A DNA stretch of 64,000 bases from Cognatiluteimonas weifangensis (GTDB lineage Bacteria > Pseudomonadota > Gammaproteobacteria > Xanthomonadales > Xanthomonadaceae): contig NZ_QVPD01000005.1 in assembly GCF_003416885.1 (NCBI RefSeq), positions 62,001-126,000 of the forward strand, written 5' to 3'. Numbering within the stretch: the first letter of the stretch is position 1; each line of letters opens with the position of its first letter. Shown piece by piece: positions 31,965-37,172 of this stretch. Below the pieces are notes generated by a model. It did not search any database and had not been told where the DNA came from. It was given only the letters and a program-made list of their open reading frames with translations. A program made the translations under genes and the position numbers.

Positions 31965-32036
31965 GTCTGACTATGATCGTTCAGCCTGGATCACGCCGCG
32001 TCGTGAAGCGGACTCGGCTTGAATGACGCGTTAGCG
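31965..32036 (-). repeat. attC of cassette 8 (degenerate)
   Basis: The R'' box CGCTAAC (32030-32036) and the TTCAAGCCGAGTCCGCTT arm are intact, but the far side is eroded. The best R' candidate, GTCAGAC at 31965-31971, departs from GTTRRRY and is separated by about ten extra bases. Probably non-functional. Confidence 0.7.
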
Positions 32037-32735: not shown

Positions 32736-32769
32736 GTGCGTGTGATTCCTGTGGTTAGACATGGATTAG

Positions 32770-32827
32770 ATATGGGCGTCTACTGAGCCGAAGAAAGTTC
32801 CGCTTCGGCTTGAATGAATTGTCAGAC
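32770..32827 (-). repeat. attC of cassette 7 (degenerate)
   Basis: R'' GTCTGAC (32821-32827) and the TTCATTCAAGCCGAAGCGG arm are clear and pair with TTCGGCTCAGT on the other side; a consensus R' box is not found at the left end. The left boundary is approximate. Confidence 0.65.
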
Positions 32828-32837
32828 CCTTGGCTAT

Positions 32838-33263
32838 TTACTGAGCGAGGATCTTGGCCTTTTCGCGGTCAAACTCATCTTGCGTAAGGGCGCCAGAGTC
32901 AAGCAGACCCTTAAGGCGCTCAAGCTGGATGTATTTGTCACCGGAGCCTGGAGTGGGTGCACTCTGAGATGCGGAGCCGGCCTGACCAACACATCGGAAC
33001 CGCAGCGTGGCCTCAGGAAAACCACCGAGCGGCCTTGCGCGCTTAGACGTCATTGAGATGGTCTGCATCACGAGAGACTTGGACTGACAGAACTGAGACG
33101 CTTCCTCGTAGGCCTTCTTTTGAAGAGAGCTTGAGGAAACAAATCCGGTCTTTCCCGTGCGCATGATCAAGTAGGAATCAGGCCCGTCAGGGATGACGCC
33201 CGTATTTCCGGCAAAAGCTGCTGGGCAAAGAAGAACCAACGCAAGAGCAATTGCGCGTTTCAT
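32838..33263 (-). CDS. Cassette 7: exported protein with C-terminal SHOCT domain
   Basis: 141 aa. ATG 33263 is chosen because GGAGG lies six bases upstream and a signal peptide follows directly (MKRAIALALVLLCPAAFA); the open frame upstream is not coding. The mature part has two cysteines (FCQSK and FRCVGQ). It ends in a short SHOCT domain (LERLKGLLDSGALTQDEFDREKAKIL), often an oligomerisation or membrane-association motif. The central domain is unrecognised. Confidence 0.8.
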   Translation of the reverse strand: MKRAIALALVLLCPAAFAGNTGVIPDGPDSYLIMRTGKTGFVSSSSLQKKAYEEASQFCQSKSLVMQTISMTSKRARPLGGFPEATLRFRCVGQAGSASQSAPTPGSGDKYIQLERLKGLLDSGALTQDEFDREKAKILAQ

Positions 33264-33290
33264 GGGGGGCCTCCTTTTTGACTGAGGAAA

Positions 33291-33350
33291 GTCTAACGCC
33301 TGAATTAGAATGAGCCGCAAAACGCCTTCGGTTTGAATGAATTGTCAGGC
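33291..33350 (-). repeat. attC of cassette 6
   Basis: R' GTTAGAC (plus-strand 33291-33297) and R'' GCCTGAC (33344-33350) bound a 60-bp imperfect palindrome with the TTCAAACCGAAGGCG arm. The stop of cassette 6 lies in R''. Confidence 0.85.
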
Positions 33351-33902
33351 ATCTGACCGATACCGTCTCAGCAACAAGCCGTCCTTGGTTAGCAGGCGCC
33401 TGTTCGTGATGATCTCCTGTTCCATCGCGGCTAATGCGTCGCCGTAAGCACCAGAAAGCTGTAATAGCTCTTTCTCTGACGACGGTATCCCGGATTCAAT
33501 TCTATGGATCAACTCATTCACGCGACTGTTCCAGCGGAAGACGCGCTGATGTGTCGAGGACAACTTAGGGAAGTAGAGCCGCACCAGCATTACGATTCTC
33601 TTGTGGAGATCGAGTGCTTGGCGTTTCACGGACGAGCCGACGGGCTTCTGGATACGATGCATCCCGCTTGCTGCATAAGGTAGGACTTCCTCAGCCCGCT
33701 TCACGTTGTGTGCAGACACCTCATTGAGCGCTAGGTAAAGCTCCTCAAGCTTTTTCGTGAGGAGGTCTGTTCTAGCACGCCTCCCAAGGATCCACTGCGT
33801 TAACAATGCGACGGTAACCGCGACCAAGGCCGCGAGTGCTGCCGTGAGGATTGCCACAGCACCTTGCGGGGCTGATCCCAACCAATTGAGTACTGGGGAC
33901 AT
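33345..33902 (-). CDS. Cassette 6: single-pass membrane protein with helical domain
   Basis: 185 aa. One strong membrane segment at about residues 14-40 (VAILTAALAALVAVTVALLTQWI) is followed by a basic stop-transfer GRRAR and a charged, mostly helical cytoplasmic domain of about 140 residues. Start ATG 33902 lies 11 bp beyond the neighbouring attC and has no clear ribosome site, common in cassettes. No family recognised. The topology, one helix plus a helical domain, is shared with other small cassette proteins. Confidence 0.75.
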   Translation of the reverse strand: MSPVLNWLGSAPQGAVAILTAALAALVAVTVALLTQWILGRRARTDLLTKKLEELYLALNEVSAHNVKRAEEVLPYAASGMHRIQKPVGSSVKRQALDLHKRIVMLVRLYFPKLSSTHQRVFRWNSRVNELIHRIESGIPSSEKELLQLSGAYGDALAAMEQEIITNRRLLTKDGLLLRRYRSDA

Positions 33903-33912
33903 GTCAGAAGAT

Positions 33913-33972
33913 GCCTAACACCTGAGTTAAACCGCGCCGCGAAGCGGCGTCGGCTTGGACGACTTGTTAGGC
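33913..33972 (-). repeat. attC of cassette 5
   Basis: Boxes GCCTAAC (33913-33919) and GTTAGGC (33966-33972) on the plus strand enclose a 60-bp imperfect palindrome with arms GCCGCGAAGCGGC. Confidence 0.9.
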
Positions 33973-33980
33973 GGCATCAC

Positions 33981-34766
33981 TTAGTACCCGCAGACTCGTT
34001 TTTTGAACTCACTGTACGCCATAGGACTTCGGGCGGCGCACGAACTCTTTGACATCTCCGCGAAGTCGTCTAGCGAAAAACGTGGATCATTGGACACCGC
34101 GTTGTAGGTGCGAACAGAGCTCATTGCAAGGTCTTCATCGAATTCCTTGCTGCAGTCTCCTCCCCGCACGTAATTCACATATATCTCGTTATACAAATAG
34201 TTGCATGTGTCTTCGTCTCCCGGAACTTTTGAATGGAGCGGCGTCCGCTTCATCAATTGCTTTCCATTGCGGTAAGTTAAATCTTCGTGCATTCCTTCAT
34301 TGAACCGAAGGTCGACATGAATTCCGTCCGCAAGTTGCCTGGGGGAAATCTCCGCTCCGTCGGCTGCAGCGAACGCCTCTGACACCACCGGCTTCAAATG
34401 AGGTCCAAATTCCACGAAGAAGTAGGAGTCAATGGTGCCTGAGCCCCCTTCGCTATTCCTGACTAAAGCGATTTCGTTCCCCCTCGAATGGAAGCGCTTT
34501 TGGATGCTCAGGTATCCGCCTTCTTGCCTGAACACAATTAGCGGCCCTAGCGTCAGTGCTTGACCGAATTCGGCAATGCTTTCCACTTTTAGATCGCCAA
34601 GAGGCGCGGATGGCGCCGGTGGCGGCGAAGAAGTCGAAGGCACGGCCGGCGCCGCCGCAACAGTGGTGCCCTGCCGATTGACTGGCGGCGCGGGCTCGGT
34701 TTGTCCGCACGCTGCGACAAGCAGTCCGATGGTTGCAGCCGCAAGCGTCGTCTGAGTGATACGCAT
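33981..34766 (-). CDS. Cassette 5: lipoprotein of unknown function
   Basis: 261 aa from ATG 34766, chosen over ATG 34799 because GAGGGAAAAAG is directly upstream and the lipoprotein signal begins there. The lipobox is LLVAAC with Cys near residue 20, followed by a Pro/Ala/Ser-rich linker (about 25-60) and a folded domain of about 190 residues with four cysteines (TCNYLY, DCSKEF, SCAARS, RVCGY). The residue after Cys is Gly, favouring outer-membrane sorting. No family recognised. Confidence 0.8.
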   Translation of the reverse strand: MRITQTTLAAATIGLLVAACGQTEPAPPVNRQGTTVAAAPAVPSTSSPPPAPSAPLGDLKVESIAEFGQALTLGPLIVFRQEGGYLSIQKRFHSRGNEIALVRNSEGGSGTIDSYFFVEFGPHLKPVVSEAFAAADGAEISPRQLADGIHVDLRFNEGMHEDLTYRNGKQLMKRTPLHSKVPGDEDTCNYLYNEIYVNYVRGGDCSKEFDEDLAMSSVRTYNAVSNDPRFSLDDFAEMSKSSCAARSPMAYSEFKKRVCGY

Positions 34767-34802
34767 CTTTTTCCCTCGGCTATCGAGAACGTGTGCCATG
34801 CC

Positions 34803-34862
34803 GCCTAACGCCTGAATTAAGCCGAGCCGCGAAGCGGCTTCGGTTTGAACGAACTGTTAGGC
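34803..34862 (-). repeat. attC of cassette 4
   Basis: Boxes GCCTAAC (34803-34809) and GTTAGGC (34856-34862) on the plus strand, 60 bp, arms GAGCCGCGAAGCGGCTTC. The stop of cassette 4 (TAA) is part of R''. Confidence 0.93.
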
Positions 34863-35339
34863 GGCAACCGATGCCACCGTTGGAAGTTGTGGATAGCGCT
34901 TGTTGAACTCCGGATTGAGCTGACAAACCAATCGTTCTTCGAGCTCTTTGCGCCCAAGGAGCATAGGGACATAGCAAACGTGAAGATGTTCTTGGATCCA
35001 TTGGCGAGTAGATTCTTTGTGCTGCTCCGAGAATTTTTTCTGGGATCCAGCAGCTCCAAGCCCATGAGAACGGTCGTAAAGATGACGTGCAATCTTCAGG
35101 GCCAGCACATGATTCTCGGGATTGCGCATGTGCATACCGATGCGCTGCCGAATAGACGTCGTTTCGCCTACATAGAAAACACTAGATTGAAAGAAGAAGA
35201 CGTAAACGCCTCCTTCTATTGGGAGGTTGATGCGAAATTCGCGAGCAAAGGTCATCGGTACTCGCCGCGAGAGGTCAAGCAGCTCAGCCTGGCGCGCATC
35301 AAAAAATGCAGCTATTTCGTGGTTCGCGAAGTTCGTCAT
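34857..35339 (-). CDS. Cassette 4: GIY-YIG nuclease-like protein
   Basis: 160 aa. Residues 44-46 (GVY) and 56-58 (YVG), ten residues apart, match the GIY...YIG core. Arg64/Arg66 sit at the catalytic-arginine position, and Glu134/Glu135 with Asn142/Asn146 (KELEERLVCQLNPEFNKR) fit the catalytic Glu and the conserved Asn. A roughly 40-residue N-terminal extension and an insertion around 75-115 set it apart from UvrC/YhbQ types. Ribosome site AAAGGGA precedes ATG 35339. A DNA-cutting role, possibly in defence or mobility, is inference. Confidence 0.82.
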   Translation of the reverse strand: MTNFANHEIAAFFDARQAELLDLSRRVPMTFAREFRINLPIEGGVYVFFFQSSVFYVGETTSIRQRIGMHMRNPENHVLALKIARHLYDRSHGLGAAGSQKKFSEQHKESTRQWIQEHLHVCYVPMLLGRKELEERLVCQLNPEFNKRYPQLPTVASVAA

Positions 35340-35353
35340 TGAGTCCCTTTGCC

Positions 35354-35410
35354 GCCTAACGCCTGAGTTAAGCCGCGTCGCGCGGCGTCGGCTTGGACGA
35401 ATTGTTAGCG
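35354..35410 (-). repeat. attC of cassette 3
   Basis: Boxes GCCTAAC (35354-35360) and GTTAGCG (35404-35410) on the plus strand enclose a 57-bp palindrome, shorter-armed than the others (GCCGCGTCGCGCGGCG). The cassette 3 stop lies 21 bp upstream. Confidence 0.88.
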
Positions 35411-35431
35411 CTTAGCCGAGATGCTCGCCAG

Positions 35432-36007
35432 CTAGGGCTTCGGAACCACAGGAAACCAGTATGCGTACGCTGCAAAGCCGAGGCCAATTACCCCGAGAAT
35501 GAAGCCGCCGACGGTGTAGTACTTTTGCAGACGGTACTCGCGCCCTTTCAGGGCCACTAGCTCGCGAATCTGAGTTGTAAGCGGCTCCAGCTTATGAGAA
35601 CTGGCGGGCATTTCTTCCCGCAGTCGCTCTAAATGGATGCGAATCTCGCTAGGCAGACCTTCAAACGGCTCGCGGTCTTTCATCTCGCGGAGCAGCGACT
35701 CGAGCCAGTCTTGGTGTGGGCATAGGCTCAGATTCCGTTCCGCCAGAACTTCACGCAGTAGTACCCTAAGAGTTCTCTGGATATCGAGTTGCGTTACGTT
35801 CCGAGTCTCAGCGATCTGTTGAACATGCTGGAGGGTGAGTGACTTTCCCTTGTGCATCAGCGAAAGGGCAATATCCTCTCGAAAGAGTTTGCGCTGCTTC
35901 AGCCTTAGAAGCTCATCCACTAGGGTAGATCCCTGCCAGAATGCGAACGCTGCTGCCCCAATTAGCAGTGCGATCAAGACGATGCTGGCCCACTGTGGAA
36001 CTGTCAT
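35432..36007 (-). CDS. Cassette 3: two-helix membrane protein
   Basis: 191 aa. Membrane segments at about 7-26 (ASIVLIALLIGAAAFAFW) and 166-186 (VGGFILGVIGLGFAAYAYW) flank a charged helical region of about 130 residues with a winged-helix-like stretch (LTLQHVQQIAETRNVTQLDIQRTLRVLLREV). The C-terminal tail is very short. No family recognised; the layout resembles small effector or sensor membrane proteins, but no catalytic motif is visible. Confidence 0.75.
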   Translation of the reverse strand: MTVPQWASIVLIALLIGAAAFAFWQGSTLVDELLRLKQRKLFREDIALSLMHKGKSLTLQHVQQIAETRNVTQLDIQRTLRVLLREVLAERNLSLCPHQDWLESLLREMKDREPFEGLPSEIRIHLERLREEMPASSHKLEPLTTQIRELVALKGREYRLQKYYTVGGFILGVIGLGFAAYAYWFPVVPKP

Positions 36008-36010
36008 AAG

Positions 36011-36070
36011 CGCTAACGCCTGAATTAAGCCGAGCCGCGCAGCGGCTTCGGCTTGAATGAATTGTTAGAT
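36011..36070 (-). repeat. attC of cassette 2
   Basis: Boxes CGCTAAC (36011-36017) and GTTAGAT (36064-36070) on the plus strand, 60 bp, arms GAGCCGCGCAGCGGCTTC, nearly identical to the attC of cassettes 1 and 4. Confidence 0.92.
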
Positions 36071-36763
36071 TCCCTGCGCATTAGCCCAAACACCCTCATA
36101 GAGCGCGACCTTGGCCGCAACTAGTTCAGTAGGCAGTGGCGCAAGGTATGTGGGCTTCCTGTCCGCAGCATCCTTAATCGAGGCGCCTAGTACCCAGCAA
36201 TGAAGTTGATCAACAATAATCAAACGGTCATGTATTTCGCGAGTGGAGCGGACCTCAAGGTTGGCATTGTGTTGCTGGCGGAACGCGACGGAAGCCGCGG
36301 CGACGCTTACCGCGTAGCGGCTAGCCAATAACCGGACGGCGACACCTGGTCGACAGTTGCTCAAGTAAGCATCGAACACCTGTGCGTCCATGTATGGATC
36401 GACCGCCAGCAACGAGTGCTCGGCTGATGAGACAACGTCGTTTAATGCGCGGAAGAAGTCATATACGGCACCTGGGCCAAATACTTGACCCTCTGGTTCC
36501 GGCAATGACTGTTCTAAAGAGGCCGCCGCGGTGTGAAGCGTCGTAAGGATCTGGCCGACGTTAGAGCTTCGATTAAGATTTCCCGCTGCCCAGTCCGAAG
36601 CCATCTTAAAGCCGATCGCTTCGCGTGGATTCCACTCGGCAACAAGCGCATTCGCTTTGCCTAGCCATTGAAAGTGTTCGCGCTGGTAAGCGATCCGACT
36701 ATCCGTTGGAGGCGGACTTTCGAGCAGCAAATTGATTTGTTCCAGAAGTAGCCGTGGAGTCAT
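36065..36763 (-). CDS. Cassette 2: phospholipase D-like domain protein
   Basis: 232 aa. A helical N-terminal region (1-95) is followed by a PLD-like half domain: LLAVDPYMD (119-126), VAVRLLAS, and IHDRLIIVD (177-185) with GASIKD (193-198). His178 and Asp185 occupy the positions of the HxK(x4)D catalytic motif, but Lys is replaced by Arg180. Proteins with IHDR...GxSxKD occur as accessory and putative defence genes. Only one such motif is present, so a dimer would be needed for an active site. The stop lies in R'' of its attC; no ribosome site is obvious. Confidence 0.75.
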   Translation of the reverse strand: MTPRLLLEQINLLLESPPPTDSRIAYQREHFQWLGKANALVAEWNPREAIGFKMASDWAAGNLNRSSNVGQILTTLHTAAASLEQSLPEPEGQVFGPGAVYDFFRALNDVVSSAEHSLLAVDPYMDAQVFDAYLSNCRPGVAVRLLASRYAVSVAAASVAFRQQHNANLEVRSTREIHDRLIIVDQLHCWVLGASIKDAADRKPTYLAPLPTELVAAKVALYEGVWANAQGI

Positions 36764-36770
36764 GTTGGCA

Positions 36771-36830
36771 ATCTAACGCCTGAATTAGGCCGAGCCGCGC
36801 AGCGGCTTCGGCTTGAATGAATTGTTAGGC
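36771..36830 (-). repeat. attC of cassette 1
   Basis: Boxes ATCTAAC (36771-36777) and GTTAGGC (36824-36830) on the plus strand, 60 bp, arms GAGCCGCGCAGCGGCTTC. Confidence 0.92.
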
Positions 36831-37172
36831 CTGCTGCGAGAAGGTATGGCCACATGTATGGCAGAAGAAATTATCGAGGACATTGTCGTCGATTATCTCG
36901 CCCAGCTTTGCTCCGGCAAGCGCGCCAGCTGTAGCTCCAGCGATGGCGCCGATTGCTGCTCCCGCGATTGTGGCCACAGCCTGGACTGGAATTGTGGAGT
37001 CTTCCGTGAAATGAAGCGCCAACTCGCCGCCATTTTTGGCTCCCACTACTGCTCCGGCCAATGCAGTCCCTCCTGCTGCGATGCCGCCGGCCGTAGCGCC
37101 TACTGCAGTGCCAGTCCGGCGCCCGTAGTTGCGGGCCTCCACGTTCGCTGCCCCGCATTTTGGACAACTCAT
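36825..37172 (-). CDS. Cassette 1: zinc-ribbon / glycine-zipper membrane protein
   Basis: 115 aa from ATG 37172 (MSCPKCGAANVEARN), preceded by GAGGGAGCGAAGG; the frame extends upstream, but that part lies across the array boundary. CPKC at residues 3-6 and CHTC near residue 105 form two half zinc ribbons at opposite ends. Between them are two glycine/alanine-zipper hydrophobic segments (about 20-46 and 62-92) that could insert in a membrane as a hairpin. The termini could come together to bind one zinc. No known function. Confidence 0.72.
   Translation of the reverse strand: MSCPKCGAANVEARNYGRRTGTAVGATAGGIAAGGTALAGAVVGAKNGGELALHFTEDSTIPVQAVATIAGAAIGAIAGATAGALAGAKLGEIIDDNVLDNFFCHTCGHTFSQQA

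What the first reader, a model, noticed from the sequence alone, without database searches (positions are those of the whole stretch)
34857..35339. GIY-YIG nuclease-like protein as a mobile cassette
Residues GVY(44-46), YVG(56-58), Arg64/66, Glu134/135 and Asn142/146 fit the GIY-YIG catalytic layout, with an extra N-terminal helix region and an insertion. A stand-alone GIY-YIG nuclease on a cassette could restrict invading DNA, or take part in cassette or plasmid processing.
Basis: partly seen in the sequence, partly recalled or inferred. Interest (0 to 1): 0.6.

Follow-up and report, generated by a model that had tools for sequence, protein, structure and literature searches.

The report
Nuclease gene on an integron cassette
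A short gene carried on a swappable DNA cassette in a bacterial chromosome encodes a DNA-cutting enzyme of the GIY-YIG type with its whole catalytic site in place, most likely used against invading DNA; its distant relatives ride on similar single-gene cassettes in an unrelated group of bacteria.

Summary
Window 34857-35339 (minus strand) is an intact 160-aa ORF that passes Pfam GIY_YIG_2 (PF20815, 26.7 bits against a cut-off of 22.4). With 22 relatives found here it gives a confident model (pLDDT 85.5, pTM 0.81). The best PDB matches are GIY-YIG nucleases: UvrC N-domain, R.Eco29kI and T4 EndoII. The ambiguous residues resolve to Y46-Y56-R66-H70-E134-N146, matching the proven R.Eco29kI site.

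The gene fills an integron cassette exactly: the attC R' box starts 21 nt before the ATG and the stop codon lies inside the next R'' box. The array has at least six attC sites and no adjacent integrase; the genome has 74 attC matches and an intact intI on another contig.

Relatives are about 20-36% identical. Six independent Bacteroidota relatives are also cassette-like, preceded by a CGTTRG core; others lie in defence operons.

Best explanation: a stand-alone restriction-like or nicking nuclease stored as an anti-invader cassette. The nuclease cassette is well supported; the defence role is inferred. GIY-YIG and defence cassettes are already known, so this is a new member of a known kind. The flavobacterial cassette arrays may be the more novel lead.

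The parts
34857..35339 (-). CDS, 160-aa stand-alone GIY-YIG nuclease; active-site residues Y46, Y56, R66, H70, E134, N146
35344..35350 (-). Shine-Dalgarno-like AAAGGGA upstream of the ATG
   Evidence: sequence
35352..35410 (-). attC site preceding the gene; R' box GTTAGGC at 35354-35360 starts 21 nt before the ATG
   Evidence: 74.3 bits; the site is in the model's training set
34801..34862 (-). attC site of this cassette, after the gene; R'' box GCCTAAC (34856-34862) contains the stop codon TAA; R' box at 34803-34809
   Evidence: z -2.7; 84.5 bits; in the training set
33289..36830 (-). array of six attC sites (33289-33350, 33911-33972, 34801-34862, 35352-35410, 36009-36070, 36769-36830) without an adjacent integrase (CALIN); decayed or unusual sites near 31984-32026 (21.5 bits) and 32752-32828
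   Evidence: GC about 54% against about 71% around
36065..36763 (-). cassette two positions upstream: 232-aa protein matching PADLOC candidate defence family PDC-S05
   Evidence: E 4e-19; NCBIfam VPA1262 N domain below cut-off
35432..36007 (-). adjacent upstream cassette: 191-aa protein of unknown function, hydrophobic N- and C-terminal segments by eye
33981..34799 (-). adjacent downstream cassette: 272-aa putative lipoprotein or secreted protein (by eye)

Best explanation
It is a single-gene integron cassette encoding a small, stand-alone and probably active GIY-YIG endonuclease. Steps: (1) The gene lies exactly between two attC recombination sites, so an integron integrase could excise it or insert it elsewhere (anatomy shown; movement inferred). 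(2) The protein folds as a GIY-YIG domain with an N-terminal helix and a helical insertion; Y46, Y56, R66, H70, E134 and N146 form one metal-dependent active site that would hydrolyse a phosphodiester bond, E134 holding the Mg2+ (fold predicted; catalysis inferred from R.Eco29kI and I-TevI). (3) No methyltransferase travels with it, so it is unlikely to be a classical sequence-specific type II enzyme that would cut its own host. It more likely recognises modified or structured DNA, nicks, or acts with another factor (inference). (4) The net effect is most likely protection against phage or other incoming DNA, as a stored defence cassette (inference).
For: Pfam GIY_YIG_2 over cut-off. Profile match to UvrC N-domain at 5e-8, including the LEE...PKYN segment. 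Model pLDDT 85.5, pTM 0.81. Foldseek: UvrC N-domain E 6e-5, next rows T4 EndoII and R.Hpy188I. VIA: R.Eco29kI Z 7.8 over model residues 1-150, UvrC 7.7, T4 EndoII 7.6. Residue spacing R66-H70 (4) and E134-N146 (12) equals R.Eco29kI R104-H108 and E142-N154, and mutants of Y49, R104, H108, E142 and N154 lose all or most cleavage (PMC1952068). Y46, Y56, R66 and E134 are 23/23; Y46, Y56 and R66 are free of the search bias in 21 of the 22 relatives, which were retrieved through the other motif. Cassette fit. Genome integron: intI and 74 attC matches. Defence company: relatives L031 and L033 directly follow vsr (and in L033 EcoRII-type REase, C5-MTase and vsr genes; L031 is 98% identical over the shared upstream DNA); relative L026 sits between a SngC-like helicase (E 8e-209) and a gene matching MkoC over part of its length (E 1e-52); a cassette two away matches PDC-S05. 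Integron cassettes are a known store of anti-phage genes (PMC12444791).
Against: No activity, expression or phage data. No promoter-like or terminator-like site above chance near the cassette. PADLOC matches of the protein itself are weak (E 0.004 at best). The Arg-Arg pair conserved in 21 of 22 relatives (positions 80-81) is Ala-Leu here, so substrate handling may differ. Most relatives have Asp where this one has His70. Homology is distant (about 20-36%). E134 conservation is biased for 21 of 22 relatives because they were retrieved through GRxELEE.
Confidence: 0.55

Rival explanations
1. A DNA-repair or branched-DNA nuclease (UvrC/Cho-like or Slx1-like) that nicks damaged or structured DNA and gives the host extra repair capacity.
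For: Best sequence-profile relatives in NCBIfam and PDB are Cho and the UvrC N-domain; stand-alone GIY-YIG repair nucleases exist (Cho, general knowledge).
Against: No UvrB-binding or HhH domain and no RING found; structural match to Slx1 is poor (Z 2.2); relatives keep company with R-M and defence genes rather than repair genes.
Confidence: 0.18
2. Silent cargo: an intact but unexpressed cassette in an array that lacks its own integrase and Pc promoter.
For: No intI next to the array; no promoter-like site above chance.
Against: The ORF, a Shine-Dalgarno-like site and all six active-site residues are intact; integrases can act in trans on such arrays (PMC12444791) and the genome has an intact intI.
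Confidence: 0.14
3. A selfish (homing-like) endonuclease cassette that spreads by cutting empty sites.
For: GIY-YIG homing enzymes share the fold; TIGR01453 weak match, 17.7 bits against a cut-off of 56.
Against: No DNA-binding NUMOD-type module in the 160-aa protein, no intron or intein; attC sites already explain movement.
Confidence: 0.06
4. A factor of cassette or plasmid processing, for example trimming folded attC hairpins.
For: Only the location on a cassette; relatives ride cassettes in two settings.
Against: Many relatives show no cassette core before the gene (L024-L027, L030, L032, L035; L031/L033 in an R-M operon); integron recombination is not known to need such a nuclease (general knowledge).
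Confidence: 0.04

Closest known systems
R.Eco29kI (GIY-YIG type II restriction endonuclease, PDB 3mx1/3mx4)
   Same: Fold over nearly the whole model including the N-terminal helix (Z 7.8, 1-150); same six active-site residues with identical Arg-His and Glu-Asn spacing
   Different: 14-16% identity; no cognate methyltransferase alongside; shorter; recognition loops not compared
UvrC N-terminal GIY-YIG domain and Cho
   Same: Closest by sequence profile; same Tyr-Tyr spacing (Y19/Y29 of T. maritima UvrC, named in the titles)
   Different: Stand-alone; helical insertion before the third strand; no UvrB- or DNA-binding C-terminal half; His70 where T. maritima UvrC has Tyr43 (by spacing)
Pfam GIY_YIG_2 (PF20815) proteins
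   Same: Passes the family cut-off and aligns over profile 31-134 including the insertion
   Different: Low score; UvrC-sized ORFs can reach nearly the same score over the N-terminal half
PD-T4-3 (GIY-YIG 5hmC-specific anti-phage restriction enzyme, PDB 9u75)
   Same: GIY-YIG anti-phage nuclease; shares the core fold (Z 4.5)
   Different: About 250 aa with an additional part; no close sequence relationship shown
GIY-YIG cassette orf6 of the Aeromonas sp. 3925 class-4-like integron (PMC10609294)
   Same: A GIY-YIG domain protein encoded by an integron cassette
   Different: Its sequence could not be compared here; different host and array

Membership tests
GIY-YIG nuclease superfamily | GIY and YIG motifs on a beta-hairpin, three-stranded sheet with helices | tested here: met
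   strands 44-50, 53-60, 119-125 in the model; top fold matches are GIY-YIG nucleases
GIY-YIG nuclease superfamily | catalytic Tyr, Arg and Glu conserved | tested here: met
   Y46, Y56, R66, E134 23/23; Glu was part of the search motif, so biased; Y46, Y56, R66 unbiased for 21 of 22 relatives
GIY-YIG nuclease superfamily | metal-dependent DNA cleavage | not testable with these tools
   needs a biochemical assay
Pfam GIY_YIG_2 (PF20815) | score over the gathering cut-off | tested here: met
   26.7 against 22.4 bits; 16 of 23 family members also match at E 0.1 or better
Type II restriction endonuclease of the Eco29kI kind | fold and six-residue active site | tested here: met
   Z 7.8 over 1-150; spacing match. 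This shows resemblance, not specificity
Type II restriction endonuclease of the Eco29kI kind | cognate methyltransferase in the same locus | tested here: not met
   no MTase among the array proteins tested
Integron gene cassette | single ORF between attC sites with R'' and R' boxes and a folding bottom strand | tested here: met
Integron gene cassette | integrase able to mobilise it in the genome | tested here: inconclusive
   intact IntI, 485 bits against cut-off 265, G000:C8:333-1274; that it acts on this array was not tested
Complete integron | intI and attI adjacent to the array | tested here: not met
   array is internal to contig C41, intI is on C8; it is a CALIN in this assembly
GIY-YIG homing endonuclease | C-terminal DNA-recognition modules and an intron or intergenic homing setting | tested here: not met
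   160 aa, no further Pfam domain; grpIintron_endo far below cut-off
Known PADLOC defence system | confident match to a defence model | tested here: not met
   best UzuA E 0.0039

The most novel reading that the evidence does not exclude
This GIY-YIG nuclease family is a recurrent cargo of two different single-gene cassette systems: classical attC cassettes in a gammaproteobacterial integron, and an integron-like system in Flavobacteriia. In the latter, co-oriented single-ORF units are bounded by a CGTTR core and an IntI-like tyrosine recombinase with an extra N-terminal segment lies divergent to one array; I found no description of it in the held papers. A small nuclease kept by both cassette systems would mark it as a general anti-invader cassette.
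Probability: 0.35. Interest if true: 0.75.

Novelty: new member of a known kind. Interest (0 to 1): 0.42.

Why it matters
Most integron cassette genes have no assigned function. This one can be given a fold, a complete active site and a testable role with single-residue controls. If it blocks phage or plasmids without a methylase, it adds a compact defence enzyme to the integron store. The cassette habit of its Bacteroidota relatives points to integron-like arrays in a phylum where surveys report very few integrons (PMC9024848).

Tried and rejected
Direct searches with the single protein found nothing in 85,000 species genomes, plasmids, phages or viral contigs; with E up to 10 only apparent chance matches to other proteins. 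PF20815 over the order (397 genomes) found only this gene. A five-sequence alignment had no stretch conserved enough for a scan. Single-sequence folding failed (pLDDT 38). Rfam has no match in the array. The idea that it is a UvrC or Cho fragment was rejected: the N-terminal helix and the insertion are shared by the relatives. Homing endonuclease rejected on lack of recognition modules. A strict GTTRRRY test for flavobacterial sites failed in all but one locus because their core is GTTRGC-like; a relaxed CGTTRG test was then defined after seeing the sequences, so its count (7 of 14 loci, 6 independent, against 0.9% of windows) is post hoc. Tree placement is unreliable: end branch 2.8, drawn to other long branches. 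Family absence from the VIA list is not used as evidence.

Full report
What is there. It passes Pfam GIY_YIG_2 and just misses GIY-YIG. NCBIfam places it near excinuclease Cho at 6.8e-7, far below that model's equivalog cut-off.

Relatives. Plain homology searches found nothing close: no hit in 99 related genomes besides its own, nothing in plasmids or phages, and over 397 genomes of its order only this genome has a PF20815 match. A motif-guided scan of 85,000 species genomes gave 22 loci confirmed by tblastn, mostly Bacteroidota, with two gammaproteobacterial MAGs, one other proteobacterial MAG, one Armatimonadota and one Anaerolineae MAG. Identity to the window protein is about 20-36%. Y46, Y56, G58, E59, R66, R130, E132 and E134 are 23/23. 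Twenty-one of the 22 relatives matched only the GRxELEE motif, so for them the Tyr, Gly and Arg positions are unbiased while the Glu is not.

Fold and active site. With this alignment AlphaFold2 gives pLDDT 85.5 and pTM 0.81: N-terminal helix 3-20, strands 44-50 and 53-60, helix 63-72, extra helices 78-88 and 105-118, strand 119-125, helix 130-141. Foldseek's best PDB matches are UvrC N-domains (E 6e-5 to 7e-4), then T4 EndoII and R.Hpy188I at weaker values. VIA gives R.Eco29kI Z 7.8 (108 residues, rmsd 3.4, model 1-150), UvrC 7.7, T4 EndoII 7.6, PD-T4-3 4.5. These Z values are middling, but the rows with Z over 7 are all GIY-YIG nucleases. R.Eco29kI uses Y49, Y76, R104, H108, E142 and N154, and substitution of each one tested (Y49, R104, H108, E142, N154) removes or strongly reduces cleavage (PMC1952068). 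The window protein has Y46, Y56, R66, H70, E134 and N146 with the same Arg-His (4) and Glu-Asn (12) spacing. No superposition of side chains was made. One departure: an Arg-Arg pair conserved in 21 of 22 relatives is Ala-Leu (80-81) here.

Cassette anatomy. The array holds six clear attC sites (74-89 bits; they trained the model, so this is a description and not a test) and at least one decayed site. Not every single site folds better than its shuffles (z from -0.3 to -4.7). The independent test is the genome: the same model finds 74 matches, clustered on contigs C14, C15, C23, C2, C1 and C41, together with an intact integron integrase at a contig edge (C8, 485 bits against cut-off 265). The array in the window is internal to contig C41, so it is a cluster of attC sites lacking an integrase. 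Local GC is about 54% against about 71%. The gene is fitted tightly: R' GTTAGGC starts 21 nt before the ATG, a Shine-Dalgarno-like AAAGGGA lies between, and the stop codon TAA lies inside R'' GCCTAAC.

Company of relatives. In L033 the gene directly follows an EcoRII-type restriction gene, a C5 methyltransferase and vsr; L031 is 98% identical over the shared upstream DNA. In L026 it lies between a SngC-like helicase (8e-209) and a large gene matching MkoC over part of its length. In L028 the neighbouring cassette carries a Schlafen AlbA_2 domain. In the window, the cassette two positions upstream matches PADLOC candidate PDC-S05 at 4e-19. Some Bacteroidota relatives have a C-terminal extension resembling a helix-turn-helix by eye, and several are tandem GIY-YIG proteins.

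Cassette habit in Bacteroidota. In L020, L021, L022, L023/L029, L028 and L034 a CGTTRG core lies 29-36 nt before the ATG, against 0.9% of windows (motif chosen after inspection). The L020 and L028 upstream regions are alike only over the last 33 nt, that is from the core to the ATG. L028 has four GCTAAC...GTTAGC sites of 133-195 bp in 4.5 kb, and the GIY-YIG gene lies exactly between two of them with its stop codon in GCTAAC. In the Pseudozobellia genome the repeat before the gene has 29 matches, nearly all compared copies ending at the core ...CCGTT. One contig shows eight repeat ends with co-oriented units, seven of which carry an ORF starting 14-32 nt after the core, with unrelated products. 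An IntI-like tyrosine recombinase lies divergent to one such repeat (L055); it is below the IntI cut-off, and other tyrosine recombinases in control genomes also match that model below its cut-off, so its role is a guess.

Mechanism. Shown: intact ORF, cassette boundaries, fold prediction, active-site set. Inferred: metal-dependent cleavage, mobility by the genome's integrase, and a role against foreign DNA. Because no methylase accompanies it, a type IV-like, nicking or partner-dependent mode is more likely than a classical type II enzyme. Integron cassettes as anti-phage stores are established in Vibrio, as cited in a study of Xanthomonas integrons (PMC12444791). A GIY-YIG cassette has been reported in Aeromonas (PMC10609294). 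The finding is therefore real and useful but of a known kind.

Noticed in passing
L110 (Pseudozobellia thermophila G1161:C34:7500-19500), L020, L055, L111: Integron-like arrays in a flavobacterium: 29 matches of a ~270-bp repeat, nearly all compared copies ending at CCGTT, separating co-oriented units, most with an ORF starting 14-32 nt after the core.
   Followed up: partly
L055:1743-2810 and similar recombinases in L054, L056, L057, L058: Tyrosine recombinases with an N-terminal segment of the form KWSxTxKxWYLPD; in the two scanned, SAM-like and integrase domains follow; one lies divergent to a repeat and minus-strand genes like an integron platform. Below the IntI cut-off.
   Followed up: partly
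L110 and L020 repeat starts: In Pseudozobellia the ~270-bp repeat often follows TATACGAGACC-like ends resembling those of L028 sites (TATACAAGACCGTTAGC), as if an element had inserted just before the core. Unexplained.
   Followed up: no
L028:1056-4412 (Winogradskyella immobilis): Four palindromic GCTAAC...CGTTAGC sites (133-195 bp, shuffle z -2.2 to -5.6) in 4.5 kb, flanking a Schlafen AlbA_2 gene and the GIY-YIG gene.
   Followed up: partly
window 36065-36763: Cassette protein matching PADLOC candidate defence family PDC-S05 (E 4e-19).
   Followed up: no
G000 contigs C8, C14, C15, C23, C2, C1, C41: The host carries a sizeable chromosomal integron split over contigs: intI at the edge of C8 and 74 attC-model matches, with satellite arrays on C2, C1 and twice on C41.
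   Followed up: partly
L026:2793-7892: A GIY-YIG relative sits between a SngC-like helicase and a gene matching MkoC/MkoA over part of its length, possibly a helicase-nuclease defence module.
   Followed up: no
L036, L039, L040, L041: Proteins that look like two GIY-YIG domains in tandem, in Bacteroidota and one Anaerolineae MAG; they share His at position 70 with the window protein.
   Followed up: no
window 36825-37172: Cassette or boundary ORF with a zinc-ribbon-like N-terminus and a glycine-zipper-like middle (weak Pfam matches).
   Followed up: no
window 32838-33263: Cassette protein ending in a SHOCT domain (36.4 bits against 27).
   Followed up: no
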